This document shows, piece after piece, positions 1,725 through 18,010 of a DNA stretch of 29,312 nt. The notes under the pieces are model-generated. The model saw only the letters and a list, made by a program, of their open reading frames with translations, was not told the origin of the DNA and searched no databases. Position numbers and translations under genes: made by a program. The stretch's first letter is position 1. Each line of letters opens with the position of its first letter. Origin of the DNA: a virus; IMG/VR virus record IMGVR_UViG_3300017598_000859, positions 1-29,312 of that record. The stretch is one strand, 5' to 3'.

Positions 1725-1989
1725 TTCTTTTCCTTAAATCATTTTCTTCTTTATACCATTTATCGTAGGCTTTATTATAATCTTCTTGATCTTTAAGTCC
1801 ATATTCTTCAAATAAATATTGAATCATTTGCTTGAATGTAAATCTTCCTTTTATATCTATATAAATTGGCATGCTATTTATATATTGTTTAAAATAATAT
1901 TCATTGTTACTCCGGCCTATGAAGCATTGAATATCTTCTTTTGCCATCTGTATAGATTCTTCTTTAATCTTTAATAGTATTTTTTTCAT
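1717..1989 (-). CDS. Unknown 90-aa protein
   Basis: A charged, probably helical soluble protein with several Tyr/Lys-rich stretches. No motif or family is recognised. Its ATG overlaps the stop of the upstream membrane protein gene (ATGA), and its ribosome binding site is weak, which suggests translational coupling. Confidence 0.65.
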   Translation of the reverse strand: MKKILLKIKEESIQMAKEDIQCFIGRSNNEYYFKQYINSMPIYIDIKGRFTFKQMIQYLFEEYGLKDQEDYNKAYDKWYKEENDLRKRNE

Positions 1990-2177
1990 TTATTATCCAA
2001 TAAATTGTATATTTCTTCATAAATTAGGCAAAATATTCCTATTCCAATTAAACAAGATACTCCTATTAAGGTTGTTGTTGGGTAATGTTTAGCAACATAT
2101 ACAAGTCCAGAAAAAGAACCACCAATAATAATAACTCCAAGCAAAGTTGTTATAAAAGTTTTAATTTTAAAATTCAT
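1986..2177 (-). CDS. Small membrane protein with two transmembrane segments
   Basis: 63 residues with two hydrophobic helices, roughly residues 8-28 and 36-53, separated by a short loop (KHYPTTT). The short charged ends suggest an inner-membrane microprotein. GGAGTGAATAA precedes the ATG. The start overlaps the RNase H stop. Function unknown. Confidence 0.7.
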   Translation of the reverse strand: MNFKIKTFITTLLGVIIIGGSFSGLVYVAKHYPTTTLIGVSCLIGIGIFCLIYEEIYNLLDNK

Positions 2178-2629
2178 TTATTCACTCCGTTCAAAAATTT
2201 TGCCTTAACAGCCGCAGCATCAGCCATTTCATTTCCCCATACTCCGGAATGACCTCGAACGTGGTGAAAGGTTAAGTGATCGAATTTATTAACAAGTTTT
2301 TTAATTTCTCTAATCAAGTCTATATTCTTTTTTGCATTCCAGTTTTTCTTAATACTTCCAAGACAATATTGTGAATCTGTATATAACCTTATCCGGTGTT
2401 TAAACAGTTGTTTAGCATTTTTTAAAGAGTCAATTTTTTGTAATGCAAAAAGGATGGCTGATAGTTCTGCTGCATTGTTTGTGCCTATACCAATATTCCG
2501 AGATATAGTATGTATGATTTTGCTGTTTTGAATAAATACTACGCCTGCCCCTGCTACCCCTGGGTTGCCGCTTACAGCTCCGTCCGAATATATGTCAAGT
2601 ATTTTTGTTAAATCAATTTTATTTATCAT
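2174..2629 (-). CDS. rnhA: Ribonuclease HI
   Basis: RNase HI cleaves the RNA strand of RNA-DNA hybrids; in a phage it probably removes primers or R-loops. In the 151-residue product (ATG at 2629) the four catalytic carboxylates are all visible: Asp16 (IYSDGA), Glu55 (NNAAELSA), Asp85 (LYTDSQ) and Asp137 (NEMADAA). The flexible-loop His127 (RGHSG) is also present. The basic handle helix region of the E. coli enzyme is represented by a Lys/Asn-rich stretch near 94-102. Length is typical for the family. A TTG six bases upstream is an unlikely alternative start. The ATG lies inside the end of the upstream 66-aa gene, which implies coupling. Confidence 0.92.
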   Translation of the reverse strand: MINKIDLTKILDIYSDGAVSGNPGVAGAGVVFIQNSKIIHTISRNIGIGTNNAAELSAILFALQKIDSLKNAKQLFKHRIRLYTDSQYCLGSIKKNWNAKKNIDLIREIKKLVNKFDHLTFHHVRGHSGVWGNEMADAAAVKAKFLNGVNK

Positions 2630-2819
2630 AAGCAAGTTTTTCGCATATTGAAATAACCTCTTTATCTTTATTCATAATTTTAATTAGTAATTCTTTTGTT
2701 TCTTCTGGAGCATGTTTCATAGCAAGCCTAACCATGTCCATCCAATTTACATTGTTTTTTGATCTTATTTCCTGCATTTGATCAATACGCATATCTTGAT
2801 TTAAACTTTTGGTTTCCAT
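2619..2819 (-). CDS. Small conserved helical protein, possibly linked to surface-sugar genes
   Basis: 66 residues. The centre reads RSKNNVNWMDMVRLAMKHAP, followed by a Glu/Lys-rich helix. From memory, short proteins with an N-N-x-x-W-M-x-x-x-R-L-A core occur beside sugar-nucleotide and nonulosonate genes in other bacteria and phages, but I cannot check this here. The start is good (AAGGAGAAATAAAA before the ATG), with the site embedded in the last codons of the acetyltransferase gene upstream. Biochemical role unknown. Confidence 0.7.
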   Translation of the reverse strand: METKSLNQDMRIDQMQEIRSKNNVNWMDMVRLAMKHAPEETKELLIKIMNKDKEVISICEKLAYDK

Positions 2820-2821
2820 TT

Positions 2822-3379
2822 TTATTTCTCCTTATTCATCCATTCGTCAAAAAGCAACCCATAACTAATTACATTTTTGTATTTTCCATTCAGCCAAACA
2901 CCGCTTCTAAGCTCGCCTTCTTTTTTAAATCCGAGCTTCTGGGCTACTCTTTGCATACCTATATTTGTCGCGGCAGTTCCGGTCCAAATGCGATGCATGT
3001 TCATTTTTTTAAAGCCGTGATCAATTAAAATAGATAAAGCTTCTGTGGCATAGCCCATTCTCCAATAGTCTGTATTTCCCATAACTATTGCCATTTCTGC
3101 TGATTTATTCGTTTGGTTGATTGATTGTAAAGAAATATTCCCAATGTGAATGCTCTTTTTTAACTTTAAAACATCTGTCTCTCTTTTTGCCCAAATACCA
3201 AAAATAATATTATCGGGATTATTTTCTAAATATTTTTCAGCATCGTCTTTTACAAAACTGCCAAGACCGTGACTATTGTGCTTTGTGACCTCTGGGCTTG
3301 AAAACCACGAAAGATAATCTTCTGAAATATCTTCTTTAATGAAAGGTTTTAAAAAAAACCTTTTTGTTTCATAGATCAT
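2822..3379 (-). CDS. GNAT N-acetyltransferase, PseH/RimJ-like
   Basis: 185 residues of the Gcn5-related acetyltransferase fold. The acetyl-CoA pyrophosphate-binding segment is WRMGYATEA (about 106-114), followed by the typical MNMHRIWTGTAATNIGMQRV strand-helix and the LGFKKEGELR motif near the C-terminus, as in RimJ/RimL and PseH proteins. In pseudaminic and legionaminic acid pathways a GNAT enzyme acetylates the 4-amino sugar nucleotide before the sugar is released. A PseB-like dehydratase, NeuB-like synthase and DegT aminotransferase lie just upstream, so that role is favoured here. Protein N-terminal acetylation is the main alternative. Confidence 0.85.
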   Translation of the reverse strand: MIYETKRFFLKPFIKEDISEDYLSWFSSPEVTKHNSHGLGSFVKDDAEKYLENNPDNIIFGIWAKRETDVLKLKKSIHIGNISLQSINQTNKSAEMAIVMGNTDYWRMGYATEALSILIDHGFKKMNMHRIWTGTAATNIGMQRVAQKLGFKKEGELRSGVWLNGKYKNVISYGLLFDEWMNKEK

Positions 3380-3382
3380 TTT

Positions 3383-3601
3383 TTAATATCCTTTAATATG
3401 TTCTTTACGTGATAAACATAGACATTTTTTATCTTTCATCCATCTATTGTTTTCTTTAAGAGTTGGTTGAAATTCTTGTAAGCATTTTCCTTGTCCAAAA
3501 ACCCTTTGTTCAAAATACCTACATTTTATATTTATGTCAGAATTAACACAAAAGGTTGAGTTTGGAACCCTAATTTCCTTAAATACTATTGTTTCTTGCA
3601 T
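3383..3601 (-). CDS. Small five-cysteine protein, unknown
   Basis: 72 residues with cysteines near 18, 27, 40, 60 and 62, so metal binding is plausible. No family recognised. It sits between the dehydratase gene (1 nt gap) and the acetyltransferase gene. GGGATGGAATAA precedes the ATG. Confidence 0.65.
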   Translation of the reverse strand: MQETIVFKEIRVPNSTFCVNSDINIKCRYFEQRVFGQGKCLQEFQPTLKENNRWMKDKKCLCLSRKEHIKGY

Positions 3602-4576
3602 TTATTCCATCCCTATCATTTTTTGAATTTGTTTAACAGTTAATTGGTCAGGGTTATTATCACTTCTGTATTCAAGCTCTTTTTTATTCCTAAACGGAAA
3701 ATTATTAGAAATAATGAATCTATTTTTTTGTTTATCTTTATATGAAACTTTGCTTTCTTGCCCAGAGATTAAAATTTCATGCATCTTTTCCCCTGGTCTA
3801 ATTCCCATATCAACAGTCACAGCATCAGGAACAATCGCCTTAGCAATATCAAGAACTTTAGCCGATCCCATAACAGGAATAAACATTTCTCCACCCTTCA
3901 TATCGTCCACAGCACCTAAAATAAATTTAACAGCATTTTCAATTGTAATCCAGAAACGTGTCATGTCTTTATGAGTTATTGTTATTTTCCCAGTTTCTTT
4001 ATACTGTTTTTTAAAAAGTGGTATAATACTTCCACGGCTTCCAAGAACATTGCCATACCTGCATACGGAGAATTTAGTTTTGTCGTCTCCAGAGTAAACA
4101 TTGCCATTTAAAAACAATTTTTCAGAACAGAATTTGGTAGCACCATATAGTGTTGTTGCTTCAACTGCTTTATCTGTACTAATCGCCATTACTTTTTCAA
4201 CATTTCTTTCGATTGCTGCTTCAAGGACATTAGCAGATCCTACAGTATTTGTTTTTACCGCTTCAAGAGGATCTTTTTCCCCTACTTGTATGTGTTTTAA
4301 TGCGGCTGCATGAATGCAAATATCAACACCCTTTAGCGCCATTTTTAATCTGTCTTTATCTCTAACATCACCGATTAAAAAAGAAACCGGAATACTTTTT
4401 CCGAACTCCTGCTCTAATTCATTTTTCATATTCCATTGCAAAGTTTCTCCTCTTGAATAAATACGGATACCTCTTGGATTTTTATTCTTCAAGAGGTATT
4501 TTGTCATGGCTTTTCCAAGAGTTCCTGATCCTCCAGTTATAAGGTATTCCATTCCAGCTTTAGTTGTTGTTGTCAT
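3602..4576 (-). CDS. PseB-like UDP-sugar 4,6-dehydratase (extended SDR)
   Basis: 324 residues, an extended short-chain dehydrogenase of the UDP-N-acetylglucosamine 4,6-dehydratase type (PseB/FlaA1/CapD clade), the first step of pseudaminic or legionaminic acid synthesis. The NADP-binding glycine motif is GGSGTLG (15-21). GDVRD (69-73) and AALKH (91-95) are typical of PseB. The catalytic set is STDKA (133-137) with Tyr144 and Lys148 (YGATK). Length matches soluble PseB rather than the long membrane-anchored FlaA1 forms. AAAGGAGGACA precedes the ATG at 4576. Whether the enzyme inverts C5 (pseudaminic) or retains it (legionaminic) cannot be decided here. Confidence 0.85.
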   Translation of the reverse strand: MTTTTKAGMEYLITGGSGTLGKAMTKYLLKNKNPRGIRIYSRGETLQWNMKNELEQEFGKSIPVSFLIGDVRDKDRLKMALKGVDICIHAAALKHIQVGEKDPLEAVKTNTVGSANVLEAAIERNVEKVMAISTDKAVEATTLYGATKFCSEKLFLNGNVYSGDDKTKFSVCRYGNVLGSRGSIIPLFKKQYKETGKITITHKDMTRFWITIENAVKFILGAVDDMKGGEMFIPVMGSAKVLDIAKAIVPDAVTVDMGIRPGEKMHEILISGQESKVSYKDKQKNRFIISNNFPFRNKKELEYRSDNNPDQLTVKQIQKMIGME

Positions 4577-4775
4577 TGTCCTCCTTTATCTTTTCTCCAC
4601 AATCACATGGATCGATATCTAACAGCAAATTTAAATCATTATCAATTCCACGAGCATAAATATTTAATGGTTCTCCGCATACACTACAGTTAATAATTGC
4701 GGGTTGTTTTTTCATGTGGTTCCATATAGCTGAACAAACTGCACTACTTACTTCATTTGTCATTTCTTTGTTCAT
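4560..4775 (-). CDS. Small zinc-ribbon-like protein
   Basis: 71 residues with CSVCG (about 30-34) and CDCG (about 57-60), two Cys pairs that probably bind one zinc ion. GGAGGAATTGCTAA precedes the ATG. It overlaps the NeuB-like gene by 23 nt and the PseB-like gene by 17 nt, in other frames. Function unknown. Confidence 0.7.
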   Translation of the reverse strand: MNKEMTNEVSSAVCSAIWNHMKKQPAIINCSVCGEPLNIYARGIDNDLNLLLDIDPCDCGEKIKEDNDNNN

Positions 4776-5613
4776 TTAGCAATTCCTCCCTAAATTTTTT
4801 CAAAGGCCTCATTCCATCAGTCGGATCAACTTTCCATTTTTTCGCTTCTGAATCATAGTTTTTATCATGGCAAAGTATAGATTCTTGACTAATCCGCACA
4901 CCGCGAATAACATTTTTAATTTCTTTTGGAGTCCAGCAATGGCCAAAAGAGGATTCCCATCCTTTTTTGTCTTCAAGATCTAAATGAAATTCAATAAATT
5001 TAGCTCCTTGATTAACTGATTGATAAATTACTCCAGGCTCTTTTGTGTGGTCTGACCATCCTATTTTATTTTGATAATTATTTAAATAATTTTTGCAAAA
5101 TCTAATGTCGTACATTGAACAGTTTTTGTGAATTGCTGGATAAACAGAAGAACATCTGTATATTGCTTCCGGAGGCTTTCTTAAAATGGCTTTTGACTCT
5201 ACAAAACGTCTCACAGTTATTAGTTCCATCATCCCTGTGCTAATTTGCCACGGCTTTCCAGTTGATTGAACTTTTTTAATAAGATCATCCCATTGATTTT
5301 CGTAAGATCCTATTTTATAAAAATCAACATAAGGGAAAAGAATATCAACAGCACTTAACGAAAATGGAGTGCAACCAAACTTAATACCGATATCTCTACA
5401 GTATGTTGAAACTTCATTTAGATATTTTGCAGGAAATGTTTTTTTCTTTAAATCTTTTCTTTGCTGCTTGAAATCTGGATGGTATAAGTTTTCATTAAAA
5501 AGTTGAAGCTTAACAGCTGTGCATCCTGCTTTTTTTGCTTCATTTATTAATTTTTTTGTTCTTGGTAAACTTCCGTTATGATTTGATCCTAAGTCCGATA
5601 TCCAATTTATCAT
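4753..5613 (-). CDS. neuB: NeuB/PseI-like nonulosonic acid synthase, short form
   Basis: A 286-residue TIM-barrel protein of the N-acetylneuraminate (nonulosonate) synthase family, which condenses phosphoenolpyruvate with a six-carbon amino sugar. Visible family motifs are SDLGSNHNG (6-14), KLQLF (35-39), CTPFS (81-85), KIGSYE (100-105), STGM (125-128), CSSVYP (154-159) and GWSDHT (185-190). The usual C-terminal SAF/antifreeze-like domain of about 60-70 residues, which closes the active site of a dimer partner in NeuB, is missing: the protein ends after a basic helix. I start at ATG 5613 (MINW), just after the upstream stop; an in-frame GTG at 5631 is less likely. Its substrate is probably a di-N-acetylated hexose made by the neighbouring enzymes. 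Confidence 0.85.
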   Translation of the reverse strand: MINWISDLGSNHNGSLPRTKKLINEAKKAGCTAVKLQLFNENLYHPDFKQQRKDLKKKTFPAKYLNEVSTYCRDIGIKFGCTPFSLSAVDILFPYVDFYKIGSYENQWDDLIKKVQSTGKPWQISTGMMELITVRRFVESKAILRKPPEAIYRCSSVYPAIHKNCSMYDIRFCKNYLNNYQNKIGWSDHTKEPGVIYQSVNQGAKFIEFHLDLEDKKGWESSFGHCWTPKEIKNVIRGVRISQESILCHDKNYDSEAKKWKVDPTDGMRPLKKFREELLNEQRNDK

Positions 5614-5615
5614 TT

Positions 5616-5951
5616 TTAACAATTCTCCCACATTTTTTCAGCTAATTTTTTTCTTTTTTCTTTTTCCTTCCGTTTAATTTCTTTATTAAGTTCTTGTATT
5701 AAATACCTTTTCTTCCATACAATTTCTTCATCAACACATTTGCCGCATTTTATACATACCATTTTTTTTGCTGGTTTAGCGAATTCACAATCATTGACAA
5801 GAAAATATTCTAAATAATATTCATATTCTTCAATACAACTCCTAAAATATCTATAAACCTTCCCATATCCAATAATTTCCCAATCATGATTACAATAACT
5901 ATCATCAATTTTTCTATTTTTCGTCTTAAATATTTTATGCAATATATTCAT
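5616..5951 (-). CDS. Unknown protein with CxxCxxC motif
   Basis: 111 residues. A central CIKCGKC and further Cys suggest metal binding; the C-terminal 35 residues form a strongly basic Lys/Arg/Glu helix. The first 14 residues (MNILHKIFKTKNRK) are identical to those of the gene at 6400-6606, because both starts lie in an 81-bp repeat. GAGAGGAATTGGT before the ATG is a usable binding site. Function unknown. Confidence 0.65.
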   Translation of the reverse strand: MNILHKIFKTKNRKIDDSYCNHDWEIIGYGKVYRYFRSCIEEYEYYLEYFLVNDCEFAKPAKKMVCIKCGKCVDEEIVWKKRYLIQELNKEIKRKEKEKRKKLAEKMWENC

Positions 5952-5991
5952 ACCAATTCCTCTCTATTCTCCCAAATCTTATGAAATGCTT
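5911..5991. repeat. Imperfect 81-bp direct repeat, copy 1 (gene-junction duplication)
   Basis: Aligns without gaps to 6566-6646 (offset 655) with four mismatches. It covers the first 14 codons of the 111-aa gene, its ribosome binding site and, upstream, an untranslated relic of the end of the aminotransferase gene: in the relic frame it reads AFHKIWENREELV then stop, against AFHKVWENREELV in the intact gene. This is a scar of a partial duplication. Confidence 0.9.
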
Positions 5992-5993
5992 CC

Positions 5994-6371
5994 TTAATCA
6001 CATTTTTTCCAAGGTTTTGGCTTTATTTCATTTATTTCTTTTAAATATGCAATATGCTTTACGCACTCTTCTTTTGTATCAAACTGGACTATTTTATAAT
6101 GCCCCCCAATATTACTTTGTCCCATTCCCGCCACCCACCTTTTCATTTCAAATGATACGCCAAATATATTTTTATGTAATATTCTATATTTTTCACCATT
6201 TGTTATAAATTTTATTGTTTTAAATCTTATTATTTCTGGATAACTAAAAACCCAAAAACCAATAGGGATTAAAATTATAATAAGTAGTATATTATACAAA
6301 TTTGATTCGATTATATTGTTTATATCAAACTCACTAACCCCTTTTATTAAATCAGCAATCCAATTTATCAT
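5994..6371 (-). CDS. Unknown membrane-anchored protein
   Basis: 125 residues with one strong transmembrane segment at about residues 26-44, followed by a soluble C-terminal domain of about 80 residues. The first eight residues (MINWIADL) nearly match the NeuB-like start (MINWISDL), and 16 bp around the two starts are identical, suggesting reuse of a gene start. The stop lies directly against the duplicated junction at 5911-5991. Function unknown. Confidence 0.65.
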   Translation of the reverse strand: MINWIADLIKGVSEFDINNIIESNLYNILLIIILIPIGFWVFSYPEIIRFKTIKFITNGEKYRILHKNIFGVSFEMKRWVAGMGQSNIGGHYKIVQFDTKEECVKHIAYLKEINEIKPKPWKKCD

Positions 6372-6399
6372 TTAATATTTTCCTTATTTAAAAGTTTAA

Positions 6400-6606
6400 T
6401 CATTTAAACCAACGGACCTCCAGTTTTGTTATATTTTCCTCTGAAACATTTATTTTAAAATCATGAAGATAAAATTCTATTTTATTTAAATCTAAATCAT
6501 TAATGCGTTTTATTTCCTTTTGCAATTCATAAATATCTTCCATATATATTCTATTTTTCGTCTTTTTTCTATTTTTCGTCTTAAATATTTTATGCAATAT
6601 ATTCAT
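6400..6606 (-). CDS. Unknown 68-aa protein
   Basis: The N-terminus is the duplicated MNILHKIFKTKNRK block with an extra tandem KTKNR copy, matched at the DNA level by two copies of ctatttttcgtctt. The rest is a charged helical stretch. GAGAGGAGTTGGT before the ATG is a good site. The start overlaps the aminotransferase stop. Function unknown. Confidence 0.6.
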   Translation of the reverse strand: MNILHKIFKTKNRKKTKNRIYMEDIYELQKEIKRINDLDLNKIEFYLHDFKINVSEENITKLEVRWFK

Positions 6607-6646
6607 ACCAACTCCTCTCTATTCTCCCACACCTTATGAAACGCTT
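6566..6646. repeat. Imperfect 81-bp direct repeat, copy 2 (intact gene junction)
   Basis: Partner of 5911-5991. This copy holds the true last codons of the DegT aminotransferase and the start of the 68-aa gene, so it is probably the parent copy. Confidence 0.9.
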
Positions 6647-7886
6647 TTGCTGTATCTTCCATATCTTTAATGGTGGAGTTTGGAGCATGCAGAAGAGACA
6701 AAAACAATTCATCTTTGTATAATTTTTCTACAACAGGCAAATGACAATTATAACCTCTGGACTTAAAAACAGGCATTCGATTAATTGGTTTTATATATCC
6801 ATTCCCAATGTGAACACCTTCGCCGTCCCTGGTTGCTCTTGCTGTTAATTCTGCTTTAACAGCATTAATATACTTATCTCTATGCAATGCTTTATCTGAC
6901 CACTTAAACGCCTGTACATAATAGCTATGAGTACAATTGCCACGAATTTTAGCTGGTGTTATAGCAGGTATATCTTTTAATGCTTTGTTAAGATATTTAA
7001 CATTAGCAAGTCTTTTTTCAAGCAAATAGTCAAACTTTGCTAATTGAACACGGGCAATTGCTGCCGTTAATTCTGTTGCTCTAAGATTAAATCCAAATAA
7101 TTCTGGATATAATATTTTTGATTCAGGATAATCATTCTGTACGGCTTCTCCATGATTCATTAGCAATCTGCATTTATTTGCTAATTCATCATTGTCTGTA
7201 ACAATTACGCCCATCTCTCCTGCCGTGATATGCTTGCCAAAATTCAGGCTATATACTCCGATATCTCCGAGTGTACCAGCATACTTTGGCCCACTAATTT
7301 CATTCATTACTGGATCAAGGCCAAAGTTATATTTTATAATTTCACTTCCAATTGCCTGTGCTGCATCTTCAATAACAATTAAATTATGTTTTTCTGCGAT
7401 TTCCATAATTTTTGGGTTAAAGACTTGACCAAAAATAGAAACAGCAATTATAGCTTTTGTTTTTGAGGTTATTAGTTTTTCTACACAATCTGCATCAATA
7501 CAAAAATAATCACTTTCTACGTCAGAGAATACTGGAGTTGCATCCCATGCCAATGGCATAGTTGCAGAGCACGTCATCGTGTATGGAGATACTATAACTT
7601 CCCCACCTTTTATGTTAGCAGCACCACAAGCAATGAACAATCCAGACGTAGCAGAGTTACATACAATAGCATGTTTTGTATTAAACTTTTTAGCCCACTC
7701 TTTTTCTAATGCTTGAATTTCAGGTCCACCATAAAAACAATCTCCATCATTTGCTCTATAGCATGACAAACGCCCTTTTTCCATAACTCTTTGTATTGCT
7801 TCTATTTCTTTATTATCAAATGTGTTTTGATCTGGGAATAATTCTTTTTTAACTGGTTTTCCACCATTAACTGCTAATTTTTTCAT
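6603..7886 (-). CDS. DegT/DnrJ/EryC1/StrS sugar aminotransferase (PseC-like)
   Basis: A 427-residue PLP-dependent aminotransferase of the sugar-aminotransferase family, which adds an amino group to a 4-keto sugar nucleotide. The PLP lysine is Lys218 (NFGKHITAGEMG), the ring-nitrogen Asp is Asp174 (IEDAAQAIGS), and the PLP phosphate region is CNSATSG (76-82). An insertion of about 25 residues follows the EDAAQ motif. In pseudaminic and legionaminic pathways the PseC/LegC enzyme acts on the product of the PseB/LegB dehydratase, and a PseB-like gene lies about 2 kb downstream in the same direction. AAGGAGAAATAA precedes the ATG. The exact substrate is inferred from context. Confidence 0.9.
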   Translation of the reverse strand: MKKLAVNGGKPVKKELFPDQNTFDNKEIEAIQRVMEKGRLSCYRANDGDCFYGGPEIQALEKEWAKKFNTKHAIVCNSATSGLFIACGAANIKGGEVIVSPYTMTCSATMPLAWDATPVFSDVESDYFCIDADCVEKLITSKTKAIIAVSIFGQVFNPKIMEIAEKHNLIVIEDAAQAIGSEIIKYNFGLDPVMNEISGPKYAGTLGDIGVYSLNFGKHITAGEMGVIVTDNDELANKCRLLMNHGEAVQNDYPESKILYPELFGFNLRATELTAAIARVQLAKFDYLLEKRLANVKYLNKALKDIPAITPAKIRGNCTHSYYVQAFKWSDKALHRDKYINAVKAELTARATRDGEGVHIGNGYIKPINRMPVFKSRGYNCHLPVVEKLYKDELFLSLLHAPNSTIKDMEDTAKAFHKVWENREELV

Positions 7887-8086
7887 TTATTTCTCCTTGT
7901 AGTGATAAAAAACCCTTTTGGTTCAATGTCAGAGCTTCCATATAAAACTTTCCATGTATCTTTAATGCACATCTGATTTCTATGCATTACAAATAACTGA
8001 TTATGTTTTATTTTATGGGTTATTTTATGGTTTATTTTATCTTTTACCCACTGTTCTGCATCAAAATCTTCATTTAATAAATCCAT
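7883..8086 (-). CDS. Unknown 67-aa protein
   Basis: A basic, His-rich small protein (several HK repeats near 19-28). No recognised family. AAAGGACAAA precedes the ATG. The last codons carry the aminotransferase ribosome binding site inside a 20-bp sequence that also occurs at 8356-8375. Confidence 0.6.
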   Translation of the reverse strand: MDLLNEDFDAEQWVKDKINHKITHKIKHNQLFVMHRNQMCIKDTWKVLYGSSDIEPKGFFITTRRNK

Positions 8087-8094
8087 TTTGTCCT

Positions 8095-8358
8095 TTATAC
8101 ATTTTCGTCATTTAATATTTTTAACACATTATCCTGAACTACAAACCTATCTGCATAACCTGATTGAGTCAGGCAATTTTTAGCAGACTCAATTTTTTCT
8201 CTTGCTTCTTGTAATTCAAGTGCTAAAAAATAAATCAAATTATCACCCGTTAAATCTCTCCATTCTTTACCATATCTTAGTGCCTTTAAACCATATTTAC
8301 CATCCATAGTAACAGTATATTTATCGTTGCTTACAGATACTTCTAAAAATCTGCTCAT
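8095..8358 (-). CDS. Unknown 87-aa protein
   Basis: A soluble protein with a predicted beta-rich N-terminal half and a helical C-terminal half. No motif recognised. The start is well supported by AAGGAGAAATAA, which lies in the end of the upstream gene. Confidence 0.65.
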   Translation of the reverse strand: MSRFLEVSVSNDKYTVTMDGKYGLKALRYGKEWRDLTGDNLIYFLALELQEAREKIESAKNCLTQSGYADRFVVQDNVLKILNDENV

Positions 8359-8577
8359 TTATTTCTCCTTGTAGTACCATTTTTCAAAAATATCCCACAA
8401 AAATGACATATGTCCATCTGGATCAACATCAATATATTCATCACCAGGGACAGTGAACCATGTTGGGCCAAATAATTTGCTGAATTCGAATAAATAAGTT
8501 GTATGCTCAAAACAAATATAATTTCTATATTTGGCAAAATCACAAGCAAATCCATTATTTATTTTTATACAAGCCAT
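8359..8577 (-). CDS. Unknown acidic 72-aa protein
   Basis: Rich in aromatic and acidic residues (for example GDEYIDVDPDGH). Chosen over an overlapping frame (8355-8555) because its ATG follows AGGAGAAACAA directly and it fits the gap between neighbours. Function unknown. Confidence 0.65.
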   Translation of the reverse strand: MACIKINNGFACDFAKYRNYICFEHTTYLFEFSKLFGPTWFTVPGDEYIDVDPDGHMSFLWDIFEKWYYKEK

Positions 8578-8586
8578 TTGTTTCTC

Positions 8587-8658
8587 CTAAAAGATTTTAT
8601 CAACGATACTATACACATAATCAGTAGACACTTTAAAATTTTTATCTTTTCTATTCAT
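8587..8658 (-). CDS. 23-aa microprotein candidate
   Basis: A short ORF (MNRKDKNFKVSTDY...), with AAAGGAAATTTAA before the ATG and a TAG stop touching the next gene's ribosome binding site. It sits just downstream of the structured RNA at 8685-8859 and is probably the first translated ORF of that transcript. Position and binding site support it; no homology evidence. Confidence 0.45.
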   Translation of the reverse strand: MNRKDKNFKVSTDYVYSIVDKIF

Positions 8659-8684
8659 TTAAATTTCCTTTGTTTAAGGTTTAA

Positions 8685-8859
8685 GGGGGTTTAGTGGGGA
8701 GTGACCCGATAGATTCACCCACTACGAGTTTTAGCCCGCTAAGGAGATTGCCACATTCCTTCCTATTTTACAGCCCGGGAAATGTGGCCCGCTCGGATGT
8801 ACACGAAAATGAAATCACCAGGCCAACCCACTTAAGCGTGGGTATTATTTTTATTATCT
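8685..8859 (-). ncRNA. Highly structured RNA (possibly HEARO/omega-RNA-like) behind its own promoter
   Basis: About 175 nt with much higher G+C than its surroundings, no supported ORF and several helices on the minus strand. P1: ACCCAC (8843-8838) pairs with GTGGGT (8831-8826). A long-range helix joins CGAG (8795-8792) with CTCG (8728-8725). It encloses P2, GCCACATT (8788-8781) with AATGTGGC (8757-8750), and P3, TTAG-CGGG-CTAA (8742-8731). P4: TAGTGGG (8724-8718) pairs with CCCACTA (8698-8692), extended by TGA/TCA. The likely transcription start, about 7 nt past TATAAT (8871-8866), leaves only about 15 unpaired nt before P1. That layout resembles IscB omega-RNAs (HEARO), where a short guide precedes the scaffold. 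The identity is a guess; no IscB or TnpB gene is in the window. The structure itself is well supported. Confidence 0.75.
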
Positions 8860-8865
8860 ACTTAT

Positions 8866-8894
8866 ATTATAGGCAAAACGGCATAAACATTTCA
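8866..8894 (-). promoter_or_regulatory. Conserved phage promoter, copy A
   Basis: Minus strand: perfect TATAAT (8871-8866), 17-nt spacer, then TGAAAT (8894-8889). The block GTTTTGCC touches the -10, with AT-rich DNA upstream. The same arrangement recurs at 17973-18001 and 24911-24939. This copy faces the structured RNA. The weak -35 and invariant spacer suggest recognition by more than plain sigma70. Confidence 0.75.
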
Positions 8895-8918
8895 GATTTA
8901 TTTTATTTTTTTATTTTT

Positions 8919-9434
8919 TTATTTCAAGTAAGTTGAATAAAAATCAAAAACACTTCTTTTAAATGAATTTAAGGTATAGTTATTTTCTAATTTATAATTA
9001 TAATTATAATTCATATATCCATTGTCACCAGTATTGCTAAATGCTTTTGCTTTTTTTTCTGCTTCATCATTAACAATTCTTATTGTAAAGCATTCAATGT
9101 TTTTATTCTTACAATAAGAAACAAGTTTTTTTATTTCTGATGGCTCACGGATATTAACGCAAATAAATTTAAATTGAGCAGAAGGGTAGCAATCAAATTG
9201 TTTTATTATTTCTTTAAAGGGAGTATTGTTATATTCTGTTGTAGCATTTTTAATGTCGCTTAAAAACCTTCTTCCTTTTGCATTTTTTTTGCCATCCCAC
9301 CCAAGTAATTTGGCTTTTTCTTTTACCCAATCAATTGAAGAATATCTAACTGTGTCGGTAATTTCTTGCATACAATCAATAAATGTATCCTTGCCAGATC
9401 TTGGAGCACCATTTATAATTAATACTTTTGCCAT
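8919..9434 (-). CDS. P-loop kinase, deoxynucleoside monophosphate kinase-like
   Basis: 171 residues starting with a strand and Walker A motif GAPRSGKDTF (about 9-18), the form seen in T4 gp1-type dNMP kinases and related P-loop kinases. A later strand (FKFICVNIREP) and Arg/Glu-rich helices fit a small nucleotide kinase with a lid. The neighbouring DUF550 pyrophosphohydrolase and thymidylate synthase support a role in dNTP supply. Substrate specificity cannot be read from sequence. It is the last gene before promoter copy A. Confidence 0.7.
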   Translation of the reverse strand: MAKVLIINGAPRSGKDTFIDCMQEITDTVRYSSIDWVKEKAKLLGWDGKKNAKGRRFLSDIKNATTEYNNTPFKEIIKQFDCYPSAQFKFICVNIREPSEIKKLVSYCKNKNIECFTIRIVNDEAEKKAKAFSNTGDNGYMNYNYNYKLENNYTLNSFKRSVFDFYSTYLK

Positions 9435-9436
9435 TA

Positions 9437-9745
9437 TTATTCCCTTATATGCTCAATTGCCTTTCCTATTTCAGCCTTTTCCCAATCAGGCCATTTTCTT
9501 TTTTGATTTTTGTTATGTTTAAAAAATAACATTTCGCAAATCTCTTTAGCAGAAAATCCATTTCTCCAAGCAGCGTCTAAGGCCAAAATAATAACATCGA
9601 TCCATTCTTCTAAATCTCCTGGAGATTCTTTAATTTCTTTTAATTCTTTTTTAATATGATCAATTATACCTTCATCTCTTTGACCTGGGCCGAATGTTTT
9701 AGTCGAAAATTTAATTTGCTGGTTAATATATTTTTCTAAGTCCAA
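9437..9745 (-). CDS. DUF550 / MazG-like nucleotide pyrophosphohydrolase
   Basis: 102 residues with the DUF550 pattern: FGPGQRDEGIIDHIKKE, then DLEEWIDVIILALDAAW (the helix with the metal-binding acidic residues), then a WPDWEKAE...AIEH tail. Members of this all-alpha NTP pyrophosphatase group hydrolyse dATP/dGTP or similar nucleotides. The start codon is TTG at 9745, preceded by GAAGAGGATTAACAAT; I see no better ATG. Probably part of nucleotide pool control with the kinase downstream and thymidylate synthase upstream. Confidence 0.8.
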   Translation of the reverse strand: MDLEKYINQQIKFSTKTFGPGQRDEGIIDHIKKELKEIKESPGDLEEWIDVIILALDAAWRNGFSAKEICEMLFFKHNKNQKRKWPDWEKAEIGKAIEHIRE

Positions 9746-9749
9746 ATTG

Positions 9750-10031
9750 TTAATCCTCTTCAGTGTCTTTTTTATTTCCGAATACGTCTTTCCACAACAT
9801 CTCTAAAACAGAAAACTTAACTCTTTCGTCATCAATAGATTGTTTATAATTTGTTTTAACAAGTTTTTTAAACATTACAGGTTCAATCCCGAACCTGTCT
9901 TTCACAGAATTTGCAAGTATTTTTAAATTATCTTTTGCTGTCTCAATATCCAAAAGAAAATTAAATCCATCTTTTTCTACCAATTCTTTTAAATCTTCTT
10001 TTTCTTTTTGCGTTAATTCGTATTTTTTCAT
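9750..10031 (-). CDS. Small helical protein, possibly T4 DsbA-like
   Basis: 93 residues. The middle (KILANSVKDRFGIEPVMFKKLVKTNYK) has the layout of T4 dsDNA-binding protein DsbA, which has AKDELGVDGKMFNRLLALYH at the equivalent place, followed by an acidic C-terminal helix. T4 DsbA binds DNA near late promoters. The resemblance is from memory and short, so the call is tentative. GAGGACTGAT precedes the ATG. Confidence 0.5.
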   Translation of the reverse strand: MKKYELTQKEKEDLKELVEKDGFNFLLDIETAKDNLKILANSVKDRFGIEPVMFKKLVKTNYKQSIDDERVKFSVLEMLWKDVFGNKKDTEED

Positions 10032-10032
10032 A

Positions 10033-10197
10033 TCAGTCCTCTTTATTTTCTTCCATTTTTAGAAATAAGTTATCAATTAAACTCTCATCTGTTACAGGGA
10101 AACAAGTCTGATTATCTGTACCTGCTAAAAGATAGAATGTTCGTTCTCCAACATATTTATAGAGATTCCGCCGATACCAAAACTTTAAACCTTTCAT
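10033..10197 (-). CDS. Unknown 54-aa protein
   Basis: A short ORF beginning MKGLKFWYRRN, basic and aromatic at the N-terminus and acidic at the C-terminus. AAGGAATAAAA precedes the ATG at 10197; the TGA stop at 10035-10033 lies one base before the next gene's ATG. It fills what would otherwise be a 190-nt gap. No family recognised. Confidence 0.65.
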   Translation of the reverse strand: MKGLKFWYRRNLYKYVGERTFYLLAGTDNQTCFPVTDESLIDNLFLKMEENKED

Positions 10198-10218
10198 TTT
10201 TATTCCTTTTTGTTAATT

Positions 10219-11010
10219 TTATTCTCTAAATTCTTCTATGGTTTTCCCTCTAACTGCTTCCGCAAGTTCAAAAACATAATTATAAATGTGAAGACCTTTG
10301 CTACTTGCAATAATTTCACCATTATCAACACCAATTTCTGACGCCATATGTTGCTTTAGTAATTCAATTGCAGCAAGGTTAGCGGGGAATCCAGACCATA
10401 AATCCCACGATCTAAAATATGGAAAAAAATGTAATTTACCATCTTGAATTCTTAAATCAATTATTTGCAGGCATGCCGGATCTTTTAAAACAGAATCTAC
10501 TGGATGGCAAATTTTAAGAACTTCTTGGTTGCTTCTGTGACCTTTGTTTTTAAAATTACTAATTGCTATTTCTACTTGGTCAATATAGTATCCAAAGATC
10601 ATGTCTGAACGCACAAAATCATTAAAATTATCTATAGTTACATCTGAATTGAATTTATCAAAATGTCTTATATTACACTTTGTCATCCTTTTCCCATATG
10701 TGTAGCTTTCACCTAGTTTTTCTTCTCCGGTCATTATATAAGGAACATAATCATTAATATAATCTGCTTCAACCGGACCTGGTATATTTAGTAAAGGATT
10801 TAAACGAGGGAGAAGTGGTTCAATTTCTCCAAATGTATTAGCTGATGGATTTTGAATTTGAATTGTAATATAGTCAAACTCAAGTCTTTTTTGTCCTTTG
10901 TATGATCCTTTATCTATTATAAATTCTCTACCCATTTCAACACATTTATATATAGTTTGGAACCATGCATCAGGAAGTGTTGTCGCTTTTATGAAAACTG
11001 GATTAAGCAT
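10219..11010 (-). CDS. thyA: Thymidylate synthase family (ThyA-type)
   Basis: 263 residues. All core residues of E. coli ThyA align at a constant offset of 34: Cys180 (nucleophile, Cys146), Arg200, Ser201 and Asp203 (RSWD), Asn211 (Asn177), His241 and Tyr243 (GLHIYNY). The segment DLRIQDGKLHFFPYFRSWDL is typical. An Asn rather than Asp at the Asn177 position favours a uracil substrate, so dUMP methylation (or hydroxymethylation) is more likely than dCMP hydroxymethylation. The C-terminus lacks the usual -PVAI-like ending. AGGAGAATTT precedes the ATG. It makes dTMP for phage DNA synthesis. Confidence 0.88.
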   Translation of the reverse strand: MLNPVFIKATTLPDAWFQTIYKCVEMGREFIIDKGSYKGQKRLEFDYITIQIQNPSANTFGEIEPLLPRLNPLLNIPGPVEADYINDYVPYIMTGEEKLGESYTYGKRMTKCNIRHFDKFNSDVTIDNFNDFVRSDMIFGYYIDQVEIAISNFKNKGHRSNQEVLKICHPVDSVLKDPACLQIIDLRIQDGKLHFFPYFRSWDLWSGFPANLAAIELLKQHMASEIGVDNGEIIASSKGLHIYNYVFELAEAVRGKTIEEFRE

Positions 11011-11018
11011 AAATTCTC

Positions 11019-11336
11019 CTATTTTTCATTCAAAAATTGCTTAAGGGTAATGCTTTTATCATCAATATAGTAATCACTTCCACCTTTTCCCATCATAATT
11101 CCATGATAAGGAACACAATTTTTAATTAACCAGGAAACAAGGAATGGAGCTTCATTCCACCATCGTGCAGTCCAAATAATAATTAAGTGCCCATTCATAT
11201 ATAATTTTTTAATTTTTTTAATAATTTCTTCATCTGGTCCTGGATTATCATTATATTCTCCAGTTGTTAACGTCCCGTCAAAATCAATATTAAAAACTTC
11301 TCTATTTTTGTTTTCTGTATACGTTTCACTTTCCAT
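11019..11336 (-). CDS. Small HAD-superfamily phosphatase
   Basis: 105 residues with HAD motif I FNIDFDGTL (about 15-23), motif II IIWTAR (about 53-58), a Lys-containing GKGGSDYYIDD segment combining motif III Lys with motif IV acidic residues. There is essentially no cap domain, as in small 5'-phosphatases and capsule-gene phosphatases. It could act on nucleotides (next to thymidylate synthase) or on a sugar phosphate (next to the sugar oxidoreductase). Nonulosonate pathways can need such a phosphatase. AGAGGTTTTTA precedes the ATG. Confidence 0.82.
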   Translation of the reverse strand: MESETYTENKNREVFNIDFDGTLTTGEYNDNPGPDEEIIKKIKKLYMNGHLIIIWTARWWNEAPFLVSWLIKNCVPYHGIMMGKGGSDYYIDDKSITLKQFLNEK

Positions 11337-11640
11337 TAAAAACCTCTTTTATTTTAATTTCATCAATATTTTCATTATCCCAATCAACAGGAATTCTCAT
11401 AATGTAATCTTTGTATTCTATCGTAAAAATGTCTTGTTTGCACTCTTCGCAAAACCCAGCGTTAACCGTCCTTTGTTTAGTTTCAAAAATATTTTTTCCA
11501 AATGCCGCCTGAATCCATTGTTTATTTTTTTCATTTATAGATAATGTGCATTTAAAATCATAAGATGTTTTTATATTAAAATAATATTCGATAAAATCTC
11601 GGACAAATTCCTCTGTGTTTTTAGATTTATCTATTTTCAT
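11326..11640 (-). CDS. Unknown 104-aa protein with CxxC
   Basis: A mixed helical/beta protein with a CEEC pair near residues 64-67. I start at ATG 11640, right after the oxidoreductase stop; an in-frame TTG at 11652 is the alternative. It overlaps the HAD gene by 11 nt. No family recognised. Confidence 0.6.
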   Translation of the reverse strand: MKIDKSKNTEEFVRDFIEYYFNIKTSYDFKCTLSINEKNKQWIQAAFGKNIFETKQRTVNAGFCEECKQDIFTIEYKDYIMRIPVDWDNENIDEIKIKEVFNGK

Positions 11641-11641
11641 A

Positions 11642-12640
11642 TTATGTCCCAATTGAATCCTTGATTAAATGTACGTGGAGAGCGTCTGATCCACTACACA
11701 ATGGTTTTGATTCGCCTCTAATAGTAGACACTGCATTATCAATTAATCCGTATAGAGACGTATTCAATCCTGTTTCTTGCCGAATTACAGAAGACAAAGA
11801 ATACTCCATAGCAGGATGACCCCATTCGTTTCTTTCTGCTACCGGATAAATCTCATATTGTAGCCCATTATCAATTAATCTGATTCTTGCCTTGTCGAAT
11901 ACAATGTCTATTTCGAAGATGCCAAACTTTCTACCATCGCACCCCTGAAAAACAACATTAGAACATTTTTCGAAAGACATTTTATAATCATACGTCAAAT
12001 CATTTGGATCTCTATCGTTAATGCCGTTTCTGTTTAGAATTTCTGCATTTAAACAATCTCCGAAAAAATATCGACAAATATCTACAGCATGACAACAATC
12101 ATGCCAACCTCTTGTGTATGCAATCCTTACATTTTGAACTTTCCCAAATTTTTCAGATTCAGTATATTTTTTAATTTCTTTGTGTCCATCTGAAAATCTT
12201 CGAATATAATCAATCATAATAGGGATATTTCTTTGATCACATTCCTGTATAATTGTTTGTGTCTCTTTCGTATTTGAGCAAAAAGGCTTTTCGGCAATGA
12301 TTAGTTTGGGTTGATTTTTACCTGAATATTTTAGGATATCATTAATAACTTGATAATGTGTATTTGTGGGGGTTGCTACAATTACAATATCTGGTGGATC
12401 AGTCTGCAAAACAGCATACATTTGTTCAACAGTGTTAAAGCAATTCTCAGGATACCATTTTTTTGTTACTGCTTTTAGTTTTTCTGTACTTTTATCAATA
12501 ACAGCATGAAGAGTCGTTTCTTGATGAACCGTAATTGCATTTGCGTGCGTCAGAATGTTTGTGCTGCCATTGAAATCAATATCATCTGGTTTGAGTGCGC
12601 CTATGGAACCTAAACCAACGAGGCATACTTTTTTATTCAT
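11642..12640 (-). CDS. Gfo/Idh/MocA-family sugar oxidoreductase
   Basis: 332 residues. The N-terminal NAD(P)-binding Rossmann motif is VGLGSIG (8-14), followed by VIVATPTNTHY (86-96) and the family's catalytic-lysine motif EKPF (117-120). A WHDCCHAVD segment (179-187) supplies the His/Asp of the active site in the C-terminal beta-sheet domain. Relatives oxidise or reduce sugars and sugar nucleotides, and PtmA-like oxidoreductases occur in legionaminic acid clusters. It lies in the same direction as the cytidylyltransferase upstream. AAAAGGAGAAAATAA before the ATG is a strong site. Exact substrate unknown. Confidence 0.88.
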   Translation of the reverse strand: MNKKVCLVGLGSIGALKPDDIDFNGSTNILTHANAITVHQETTLHAVIDKSTEKLKAVTKKWYPENCFNTVEQMYAVLQTDPPDIVIVATPTNTHYQVINDILKYSGKNQPKLIIAEKPFCSNTKETQTIIQECDQRNIPIMIDYIRRFSDGHKEIKKYTESEKFGKVQNVRIAYTRGWHDCCHAVDICRYFFGDCLNAEILNRNGINDRDPNDLTYDYKMSFEKCSNVVFQGCDGRKFGIFEIDIVFDKARIRLIDNGLQYEIYPVAERNEWGHPAMEYSLSSVIRQETGLNTSLYGLIDNAVSTIRGESKPLCSGSDALHVHLIKDSIGT

Positions 12641-12757
12641 TTATTTTCTCCTTTTCTTTTTATAAATTTTCCCACAAGAAGAACACTTATATTTCTGTGA
12701 ACAACATCCAGTTTTTATTTTAAAATATTTTCCACCGCAAGAGCATTTTCTTTTCAT
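12641..12757 (-). CDS. 38-aa basic zinc-ribbon microprotein
   Basis: Begins MKRKCSCGGKYFKI and contains CSC, a CC pair and CSSCG, enough for one zinc ion, with a Lys/Arg-rich tail. Its ATG overlaps the previous stop (TAATG), and its last codons carry the ribosome binding site of the oxidoreductase gene. Likely real by position; function unknown. Confidence 0.55.
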   Translation of the reverse strand: MKRKCSCGGKYFKIKTGCCSQKYKCSSCGKIYKKKRRK

Positions 12758-12906
12758 TATTCTTCTTGCCCAGCTTCAAACTCTTCTCCACAATCCTCGC
12801 AAATTAATGATTCTTCATAAGATGGGTCTTCTTCTGTTTCATTAAATTGCCCACAAGGACATTCCCAACCCCATCTTTCAAGCCTGTAATAATTTACCTT
12901 TTTCAT
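12757..12906 (-). CDS. 49-aa zinc-ribbon-like protein
   Basis: Contains CPCG (about 16-19) and CEDCG (about 36-40) in an acidic protein, consistent with a zinc ribbon. AAGGATGAAT precedes the ATG at 12906. It sits between the cytidylyltransferase and a second zinc-ribbon ORF. Function unknown. Confidence 0.65.
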   Translation of the reverse strand: MKKVNYYRLERWGWECPCGQFNETEEDPSYEESLICEDCGEEFEAGQEE

Positions 12907-12908
12907 AT

Positions 12909-13673
12909 TCATCCTTCTTCTATACTTTTTCTTTTAATGTTAGAGTTTATTTTCAGCAATTCAGGATTTTTATTTAACCAATAAACAACATCCTCTACTT
13001 TAAAAAACACATCATGCCCGAATTTATCAAAAACTTTTTTAAGGAGTTCATAATCCTCTGGTGTATCAAGAGTAAGTCCCCAATCTGGATAATGCATGTC
13101 TGGCGAAGCAGGCCAATTCATAATTTCAAAATATTCAGGGTTCAGAGCAAGGTTAATTCCGACATGACAATCAGGTGTAAAGATCTTATTGCATTCTTTT
13201 AAAGCATTAATTCCGTAAACCTGAATATCAAACCCATCAGGCCATGATCTTGTAACACAATTAGACACATAATCAACATCATTTTTAATAAGTGTTTCAT
13301 ATAAATAATCAATATGTCTTGGGTCTACCAACGGGCAATCACATGTTAAATCAACTATAATGTCTGTCTTATTTTTTTGCGCTGCTGCGATCATTCGTTC
13401 TATACAATTGTTTTCGGCTCCGGAATAACTAAAAACACTTACCTGGTTAGAGTTGCCGAAATATTTATTAACATGATCCCGAATAGGATCATTAGCAGAA
13501 TTAGATGTTGTCGCAATAATAACATCATCAACATATTTAGCACTAAGACACCGATTTACCATCCACCAGATTGAGCTTTTTCCATTGAGCTTTTTTAGTA
13601 CTTTTCCAGGGAGTCTTGTGGATCGCATTCTTGCAAAAATAATAGCTGTTGTTTTTGTTATTTTGTTTTTCAT
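12909..13673 (-). CDS. SpsF/NeuA-like cytidylyltransferase
   Basis: A 254-residue nucleotidyltransferase of the CMP-KDO/CMP-sialate synthetase superfamily, SpsF branch. The nucleotide-binding loop is IIFARMRSTRLPGKVLKKL (11-29). CDCPLVDP (111-118) holds metal-binding Asp residues, and LTLDTPEDY near the C-terminus is typical of SpsF proteins. It would activate a nonulosonic acid (or KDO-like sugar) as its CMP derivative before transfer. It lies about 7 kb upstream of the NeuB-like gene in the same direction. AAGGAAATAA precedes the ATG. The sugar substrate is inferred only. Confidence 0.85.
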   Translation of the reverse strand: MKNKITKTTAIIFARMRSTRLPGKVLKKLNGKSSIWWMVNRCLSAKYVDDVIIATTSNSANDPIRDHVNKYFGNSNQVSVFSYSGAENNCIERMIAAAQKNKTDIIVDLTCDCPLVDPRHIDYLYETLIKNDVDYVSNCVTRSWPDGFDIQVYGINALKECNKIFTPDCHVGINLALNPEYFEIMNWPASPDMHYPDWGLTLDTPEDYELLKKVFDKFGHDVFFKVEDVVYWLNKNPELLKINSNIKRKSIEEG

Positions 13674-14610: not shown

Positions 14611-14963
14611 TTTTCATCTTCAAGAATCCATTCAAGTTCTTTTTTAGCTTTTTTCTTGAATTCATTCATTTTTGCTTCAGCCTGTGCCAATTCTTTTTTA
14701 ATTTCTTCGTATTCTTCTTTTGTTGACATTGCGTTTTCATAATTTGTTTTCATTTTTGATTCCTTTTTATTAATTAGTTTAAAAATTTGCTGTGGTGTTT
14801 CTTCAACCCACCAATAACCAGCCTTTGTATTAACTGTAGTTCCTCTATCAAGTTTATCTATACCAATGCCTATTATTTTATCTATTTGTATATATTTTGG
14901 TCCATAATTATAAGTTCTTTTTAATTTAATAAATCCTAAATTTTCATATGGTTTATTCTCCAT
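14595..14963 (-). CDS. Unknown protein with duplicated coiled-coil C-terminus
   Basis: 122 residues. The first ~65 form a beta-rich domain (IQIDKIIGIGIDKLDRGT). The last ~50 are a coiled coil (KEEYEEIKKELAQAEAKMN) nearly identical to the C-terminus of the next gene upstream (14953-15204). ATG 14963 is preferred over an in-frame GTG at 14966. The fusion suggests a duplicated module was joined to a different head domain. Function unknown. Confidence 0.65.
   Translation of the reverse strand: MENKPYENLGFIKLKRTYNYGPKYIQIDKIIGIGIDKLDRGTTVNTKAGYWWVEETPQQIFKLINKKESKMKTNYENAMSTKEEYEEIKKELAQAEAKMNEFKKKAKKELEWILEDEKIEKE
14626..14745. repeat. Diverged ~120-bp tandem repeat, copy 1 (coiled-coil module)
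   Basis: Aligns to 14972-15091 (offset 346). Both encode the C-terminal module running from a KEEYEEIK motif through KKAKKELEWIL. This is a local duplication within coding DNA. Confidence 0.85.
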
Positions 14964-15204
14964 CACTCAAGATCCATTCAAGTTCTTTTTTAGCTTTCTT
15001 TTTAAAATTATTCATTTTTGCTTCAGCTTTTACCAATCTTTCTTTAATTTCTTCATACTCTTCTTTTAAACCCATCGTCTTTTCGTAATTTGTTTTGGGT
15101 TTTGGCTTTTTTTCAATAATTTCATTTTCTAAATTTGTGATTTTTTTAATTAACTCTTGTTTTTGAAGATTTCTTTTCATCTTTTTTGTTAGATTTTCAA
15201 GCAT
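14953..15204 (-). CDS. Small coiled-coil protein
   Basis: 83 residues, almost entirely charged heptad-like helix. Its C-terminal ~48 residues match those of the gene at 14595-14963. AAGGAAAAAGAAA precedes the ATG. It lies just downstream of the SbcC C-terminal-half gene and could be a partner or relic of that coiled coil, which is speculative. Confidence 0.65.
   Translation of the reverse strand: MLENLTKKMKRNLQKQELIKKITNLENEIIEKKPKPKTNYEKTMGLKEEYEEIKERLVKAEAKMNNFKKKAKKELEWILSDGE
14972..15091. repeat. Diverged ~120-bp tandem repeat, copy 2 (coiled-coil module)
   Basis: Partner of 14626-14745, within the 83-aa gene. Confidence 0.85.
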
Positions 15205-17924: not shown

Positions 17925-17972
17925 ATCATCTCCTGGTGTTTTTATTACATAGTATCTTTATTATCTATCTAT

Positions 17973-18001: not shown

Positions 18002-18010
18002 AAATTATTT

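What the first reader, a model, noticed from the sequence alone, without database searches (positions are those of the whole stretch)
8685..8900. Dedicated promoter driving a compact multi-helix RNA
The sequence shows at least four helices (6, 8, 4 and 7+3 bp) and a 4-bp long-range helix that nests two of them, in a GC-rich island inside AT-rich phage DNA. A perfect TATAAT lies about 15 nt upstream of the first helix, so the RNA would start with a short unpaired 5' end followed by a scaffold. That is the layout of IscB omega-RNA (HEARO), where about 16 guide nucleotides precede the scaffold; HEARO RNAs without an adjacent ORF are known. If correct, this phage carries an orphan guide RNA that could act in trans with a nuclease elsewhere. 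It may instead be a new phage RNA class.
Basis: partly seen in the sequence, partly recalled or inferred. Interest (0 to 1): 0.75.

Follow-up and report, generated by a model that had tools for sequence, protein, structure and literature searches.

The report
New double-pseudoknot phage noncoding RNA
This viral DNA stretch makes a compact, intricately folded RNA of a family not in the RNA catalogue searched, kept by evolution in related phages and in a few sulfate-reducing bacteria; it is not a guide RNA of any known gene-editing enzyme, and its job is still unknown.

Summary
The minus-strand element at about 8859-8685 has homologues in four further distinct phage sequences and in four copies in three Desulfobacterota genomes (window E=2e-9 against a model built without it; others 1e-27 or better). 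Their helices differ in sequence but stay paired: over eight homologues, 24 of 38 pairs change on both sides and 92.7% of cells are paired (0/500 shuffles). It missed two pseudoknots: strand b pairs with the P2 loop (all six pairs covary, 100% paired) and strand a pairs with the P3 loop. The promoter is credible: a 67-nt box present three times in the contig. No Rfam family matches the window or nine homologous loci, and no TnpB or IscB-type protein was found in any carrier, so the omega-RNA/HEARO reading is not supported; "new phage RNA class" is. In phages it lies in a nonulosonic-acid sugar operon, 23-34 nt before a start codon. In bacteria it stands alone behind a promoter shared with a pilus-operon regulator, with the core conserved and 3' flanks diverged. 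I favour a stand-alone trans-acting RNA (about 0.5) over a cis-acting leader (about 0.3). Function is unproven.

The parts
8853..8919 (-). Phage promoter box (TGAAATGTTTATGCCGTTTTGCCTATAATATAAGTAGA core); exact -10 TATAAT at 8871-8866; predicted start near 8859; no TTGACA-like -35
   Evidence: Repeated at 24898-24964 (91%) and 17960-18026 (75%), both minus-strand intergenic gene starts
8685..8859 (-). Structured RNA (mature ends unknown)
   Evidence: R2 match E=2e-9 over 8844-8738; remaining 3' part placed by P3 and the a' motif
8826..8843 (-). P1 hairpin ACCCAC..GTGGGT
   Evidence: Counterpart CCC..GGG hairpin in the homologues
8818..8823 (-). Pseudoknot strand b (GCCUGG)
   Evidence: Pairs with b'; six of six pairs covary over the homologues, 100% paired
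8806..8814 (-). Conserved linker UUUCAUUUU, followed by CGUGU
   Evidence: Near-identical in L003, L008, L032; looser in L006 and the bacterial copies
8793..8798 (-). Pseudoknot strand a (AUCCGA), inside conserved UCCGAGCGG
   Evidence: Pairs with a' in the P3 loop; second pair is U-A, U-G, C-G in homologues and A-U here
8750..8788 (-). P2 hairpin; stem sequence changes completely between homologues
   Evidence: 8 of 11 pairs with double-sided change
8773..8778 (-). Pseudoknot strand b' (CCGGGC) in the P2 loop
8765..8772 (-). Conserved loop motif UGUAAAAU
   Evidence: GUAAAA invariant in all nine sequences
8743..8746 (-). Conserved CUCC joining segment between P2 and P3
   Evidence: Present in the homologues
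8725..8738 (-). 4-bp hairpin seen only in the window (CGGG/CUCG)
   Evidence: Absent from homologues; not part of the conserved core
8693..8723 (-). P3 hairpin with loop AUCUAUCGGG carrying a'
   Evidence: Counterpart P3: 8 of 10 pairs with double-sided change, 95.6% paired
8704..8709 (-). Pseudoknot strand a' (UCGGGU); its last U overlaps the P3 stem in this copy
8587..8658 (-). First ORF after the RNA (23 aa, AAAGGA ribosome site); coding not tested
   Evidence: Sequence
8359..8577 (-). 72-aa protein gene of the operon, unknown family; 66% identical relative in L003, also downstream of the RNA
6603..7886 (-). DegT/DnrJ/EryC1/StrS aminotransferase downstream of the RNA in the window, L003, L006/L007, L008 and L032

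Best explanation
Minus strand 8859-8685 encodes a previously undescribed structured noncoding RNA whose conserved core folds as 5'-P1-b-a-P2[b' in loop]-P3[a' in loop]-3': two crossing pseudoknots lock the P2 and P3 loops back onto the 5' half and present conserved single-stranded segments (UUUCAUUUU.CGUGU, UGUAAAAU, CUCC). It is transcribed in the phage from its own copy of a three-copy phage promoter. Shown by comparison: RNA-level selection, the fold, the promoter repeat, occurrence in a phage clade and in Desulfobacterota chromosomes. Inferred: the RNA works in trans as a stand-alone folded molecule, most likely as the RNA part of a protein-RNA complex during infection, and in phages is released from the operon transcript by processing because no terminator follows it. 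The protein partner and the biological output are unknown.
For: Covariation: 24 of 38 pairs with changes on both sides, 92.7% of cells paired, 0/500 shuffles reach it, and slid controls fall to 26-56%. Pseudoknot b/b' occurs as CUUCAG/CUGAAG, UCCCGA/UCGGGA, UUUCGG/CCGAAA, CCCUGG/CCAGGG and CCCCGG/CCGGGG, and as GCCUGG/CCGGGC in the window. Independent detection: R1, built from three phage sequences, finds L006 at 6.5e-15 and bacterial L102/L092 at about 1e-11; R2, built without the window, finds it at 2e-9. For trans action: the bacterial copies have no obvious gene after them and sit behind a promoter (TTGACA-like..TATAAT in three of four copies; an IS interrupts it in L111). Between the two bacterial clades the core is 84-90% identical, the leader 64-76% and the 3' flank 43-45%, so selection is on the RNA, not on a neighbour.
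Against: In all phage copies whose downstream side is held, the RNA ends 23-34 nt before a start codon with a ribosome site, inside a nonulosonic-acid operon and upstream of the aminotransferase, which also fits a cis-acting leader. The bacterial copies descend from one promoter-capture event and could be decaying passengers (one promoter is broken by an IS, one P3 pair is lost in L111). No transcript data. No candidate protein partner.
Confidence: 0.5

Rival explanations
1. Cis-acting leader or riboswitch-like element that controls the phage sugar operon (nonulosonic-acid pathway: NeuB, cytidylyltransferase, Gfo/Idh, DegT aminotransferase), comparable in setting to the manA and wcaG RNAs of cyanophages.
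For: Same-strand and upstream of the DegT aminotransferase in the window, L003, L006/L007, L008 and L032, including in a pattern scan of all IMG/VR not tied to that gene. RNA ends 23-34 nt before a start codon. In L006 the P3 stem is followed by CCATTTTTT, terminator-like. manA/wcaG precedent in phages: PMC2864571.
Against: The first downstream gene differs (aminotransferase, 51-52-aa ORF, 87-aa ORF, 23-aa ORF). These phages share gene order, so synteny may be simple inheritance. Bacterial copies stand alone with diverged 3' flanks. P3 lacks a U-tract in the window, L003 and the bacteria.
Confidence: 0.3
2. A new self-cleaving ribozyme that cuts the polycistronic phage transcript.
For: Size, multiple pseudoknots and conserved unpaired nucleotides are typical of small ribozymes (established knowledge), and it sits between genes in the phage sequences.
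Against: No match to any Rfam ribozyme. No conserved candidate cleavage junction: sequence just before P1 and beyond the tail after P3 varies.
Confidence: 0.1
3. Orphan omega-RNA (HEARO/IscB) or TnpB reRNA acting with a nuclease elsewhere.
For: Short 5' segment before a structured scaffold; GC-rich island.
Against: No Rfam match including HEARO RF02033 even at E up to 10 or up to 1 in homologues; no PF07282 in nine carriers (control positive) and no PF14239 (control silent).
Confidence: 0.02
4. Antitermination RNA of the put type that alters RNA polymerase on the phage operon.
For: Promoter-proximal structured RNA heading an operon in the window.
Against: Mid-operon in other phages (L006, L008, L032) and with no obvious operon behind it in bacteria; fold unlike my recollection of put RNA (not tested).
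Confidence: 0.04

Closest known systems
manA and wcaG RNA motifs of cyanophages
   Same: Structured RNAs carried by phages next to sugar and exopolysaccharide genes; manA has a suspected pseudoknot (PMC2864571)
   Different: No match in Rfam scans; different hosts; the bacterial copies here are not leaders
HEARO / IscB omega-RNA (RF02033)
   Same: Compact multi-helix RNA, found in mobile DNA
   Different: No Rfam match; no IscB- or TnpB-type gene found; HEARO RNAs lie in the 5' UTR of the nuclease gene (65% of those UTRs hit RF02033, PMC9755519)
GOLLD / ROOL RNAs
   Same: Structured RNAs of unknown function; phage association recalled, not checked here
   Different: About 150 nt here, far smaller; no match
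IS110 bridge RNA / HDV-like and other small ribozymes
   Same: Compact structured RNAs in mobile or viral settings (recalled)
   Different: No IS110 gene seen at the phage loci read; no Rfam ribozyme match; the b-a-b'-a' crossing order was not matched to a known class

Membership tests
HEARO / IscB omega-RNA (RF02033) | Covariance-model match | tested here: not met
   No match at gathering score, at E up to 10 for the window, or in nine homologous loci
HEARO / IscB omega-RNA (RF02033) | IscB/IsrB nuclease nearby or in the genome | tested here: inconclusive
   PF14239 absent in nine carriers but the control genomes were also silent; phage records are fragments
HEARO / IscB omega-RNA (RF02033) | 5' reprogrammable guide segment before the scaffold | tested here: inconclusive
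   The 5' segment differs in length and origin between homologues; no target was sought
TnpB reRNA | TnpB gene overlapping or adjacent | tested here: not met
   PF07282 absent in all nine carriers, control positive in 6 of 14
Riboswitch / cis-regulatory leader (manA, wcaG or other Rfam) | Match to a known family | tested here: not met
Riboswitch / cis-regulatory leader (manA, wcaG or other Rfam) | Consistent position in 5' UTRs of a functional gene set | tested here: inconclusive
   True in the phages, not in the bacteria
Conserved structured noncoding RNA (general) | Compensatory changes in several helices | tested here: met
   24 of 38 pairs, 0/500 shuffles
Conserved structured noncoding RNA (general) | Transcribed as an RNA | not testable with these tools
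   Promoter evidence only
Self-cleaving ribozyme | Site-specific self-cleavage | not testable with these tools
   Needs an in vitro assay

The most novel reading that the evidence does not exclude
A new family of trans-acting RNA with two crossing pseudoknots, exchanged between Desulfobacterota and their phages and expressed in the host from a promoter shared with a type IV pilus operon regulator, that lets the phage or the host control surface structures (pili, glycans) or superinfection.
Probability: 0.12. Interest if true: 0.88.

Novelty: categorically new. Interest (0 to 1): 0.64.

Why it matters
The Rfam scans find no known family, yet the structure is as well supported as comparative analysis allows with eight homologues. 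Two interlocking pseudoknots in about 140 nt imply a precise three-dimensional function (binding or catalysis). Finding it in phages and as a selected stand-alone gene in a few Desulfobacterota opens a testable phage-host RNA question. 'Categorically new' refers to the RNA family; whether the mechanism is new is unknown.

Tried and rejected
DNA-similarity searches of phages and plasmids with the RNA: nothing convincing. L004/L005 pattern hits lie inside a portal-like coding gene: chance. Twelve of 14 genome-contig pattern hits have no significant model match. L116 (antisense of murI, E=0.0016 in one of 395 genomes) and L129 (E=1.9e-5, no GUAAAAU loop, over the start of a substrate-binding-protein gene) rejected on inspection. 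Opposite-strand R1 hits in L032/L008 are P3 palindromes. L077 at E 0.02-0.07 not followed. A protein reading was considered: in L102 a 65-aa ORF spans the RNA, but in L092 that frame is closed by TGA, and the helices covary. MAFFT misaligned the 3' half of the window copy, so its P3, a and a' were placed by hand and it is not counted in the covariation statistics. Single-sequence folding was not informative. Full element ends in bacteria and a possible transposition mechanism were not resolved.

Full report
1. Is it there? The minus strand of 8859-8685 lies between the end of a kinase-like gene (8919-9434) and a 23-aa ORF starting at 8658. G+C is 50.3% against 32.1% for the contig; the most GC-rich 150-nt windows of the whole record are here. 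TATAAT at 8871-8866 is one of dozens in this AT-rich DNA, but it sits in a 67-nt box that occurs twice more, at 24898-24964 (91%) and 17960-18026 (75%), each time on the minus strand just before a gene. I take it as a phage promoter. The other two copies lead into an ORF within some 40-90 nt; only this one is followed by about 200 nt of noncoding DNA. Folding energy alone is unremarkable (z = -0.5).

2. Homologues. The downstream 72-aa protein led to L003, a 4.1-kb phage contig whose intergenic 1320-1476 resembles the window RNA. A search with an alignment of the two aminotransferases gave 80 phage loci; L008 and L032 carry it. Model R1 from L003, L008 and L032 then found L006/L007 at E=6.5e-15. 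A degenerate DNA pattern run over all IMG/VR gave only these phages plus L085, whose RNA scores identically to that of L006. The same pattern over 85,000 bacterial and archaeal species gave 14 hits of which two are real by the model: L092 (Desulfobacterales MAG) and L102 (Desulfobacteraceae MAG), E about 1e-11. Model R2 (L003, L006, L008, L032, L092, L102; no window) finds the window at 2e-9, a second copy in the L092 genome and one in a 5.1-Mb genome of the same class. It is rare: 3 of 85 genomes of that class, one genome with real copies in a sample of 395 of the phylum, and no real copy in 399 of another phylum. Those large samples used stricter filters that can lose weak matches.

3. Structure. 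On eight homologues (window left out because its 3' half needed hand placement) the fold has 38 pairs in five helices; 92.7% of cells pair, 24 pairs show changes on both sides, none of 500 shuffles reaches any of the five measures, and sliding the partners destroys the pairing. The alignment was fitted to P1-P3, so those counts lean towards them. The two pseudoknots were not part of the model, yet b/b' is 100% paired with six of six pairs covarying. Pseudoknot a/a' is 7 bp, six invariant and one covarying (U-A, U-G, C-G; A-U in the window). In the window b is GCCUGG (8823-8818) and b' CCGGGC (8778-8773); a is AUCCGA (8798-8793) and a' UCGGGU (8709-8704), whose last base overlaps the P3 stem. 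The strand order b, a, b', a' makes the two pseudoknots cross. GUAAAA in the P2 loop is invariant; CGUGU and CUCC are nearly so. The 4-bp hairpin at 8738-8725 is specific to the window.

4. Context in phages. The RNA lies on the coding strand in a nonulosonic-acid gene set (cytidylyltransferase, Gfo/Idh/MocA oxidoreductase, DegT aminotransferase, NeuB). In L006 it fills the gap between the oxidoreductase stop (6809) and the aminotransferase start (7001). In L008 and L032 it follows the oxidoreductase and precedes a 51-52-aa ORF. In L003 and the window small ORFs separate it from the aminotransferase. From the last base of P3 to the next start codon is 23-34 nt. Most aminotransferase-bearing phage loci fetched (L009-L031, L033, L034) show no copy nearby.

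5. Context in bacteria. The copies are intergenic with no obvious gene behind them. Upstream is a promoter (TTGACAAATAT..TATAAT) inside an AT-rich block that recurs at 73-89% identity in many loci of the class; in several of these it precedes a small HTH gene with a PilM-like start behind it, and the bacterial RNA leader still matches the ribosome site and first codons of that HTH gene (gene names from reading the translated sequence, no family search). So the RNA appears to have been placed behind a host pilus-operon promoter. Core identity between the two bacterial clades is 84-90%, leader 64-76%, 3' flank 43-45%: selection is on the RNA. One copy has lost the upstream part of its promoter to a DDE transposase insertion. 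Two contigs end inside the unit (L102, L120), as repeats do in assemblies.

6. What it does. The bacterial setting argues for action in trans; the phage setting alone would equally suit a leader of the sugar operon. I give about 0.5 to a stand-alone trans-acting RNA, most likely protein-bound, 0.3 to a cis-acting leader in the manner of manA/wcaG (PMC2864571), 0.1 to a new ribozyme, and the rest to others. Transcription, ends, partner and phenotype are not shown.

7. Known kinds. No Rfam 15 family matches the window or nine homologous loci at relaxed thresholds. The HEARO/TnpB reading fails the tests that could be made (the IscB protein test had a silent control). Literature searches in the held library gave no description of such an RNA, but subscription papers are missing from it.

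Noticed in passing
window 8853-8919, 17960-18026, 24898-24964 (minus): Three-copy 67-nt phage promoter box without a TTGACA-like -35; probably a temporal-class promoter needing a phage factor.
   Followed up: partly
L112, L092, L102, L121-L128: An AT-rich promoter block of about 80 nt is shared at 73-89% identity by many loci in about 23 of 85 genomes of one Desulfobacterota class, several before an HTH gene that precedes a PilM-like start.
   Followed up: partly
window 175-13673: Phage-borne nonulosonic-acid (sialic-like) pathway: MptE/Maf-like 175-1560, NeuB 4753-5631, DegT 6603-7886, Gfo/Idh 11642-12640, cytidylyltransferase 12909-13673.
   Followed up: partly
window 8919-11010: dNMP kinase-like, dATP/dGTP pyrophosphohydrolase (PF04447) and thymidylate-synthase-like genes close together: possible modified-base DNA.
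   Followed up: no
window 14626-14775 / 14972-15121 and 5909-5991 / 6564-6646: Recent duplications (79% and 95% identical), the second covering the start of two ORFs that begin MNILHKIFKTKNRK.
   Followed up: no
L003 12-920: GIY-YIG homing endonuclease with NUMOD3 repeats upstream of the RNA; not seen near the other copies, so probably unrelated.
   Followed up: partly
L114 5453-6856 / L111: DDE transposase inserted into the promoter of one bacterial RNA copy.
   Followed up: partly
L112 around 1280-2180: Repeated motifs like TTTGATCCCGAAA and AAGACCTGACACCC flank the RNA unit, reminiscent of insertion-sequence ends; a transposition route was not worked out.
   Followed up: no
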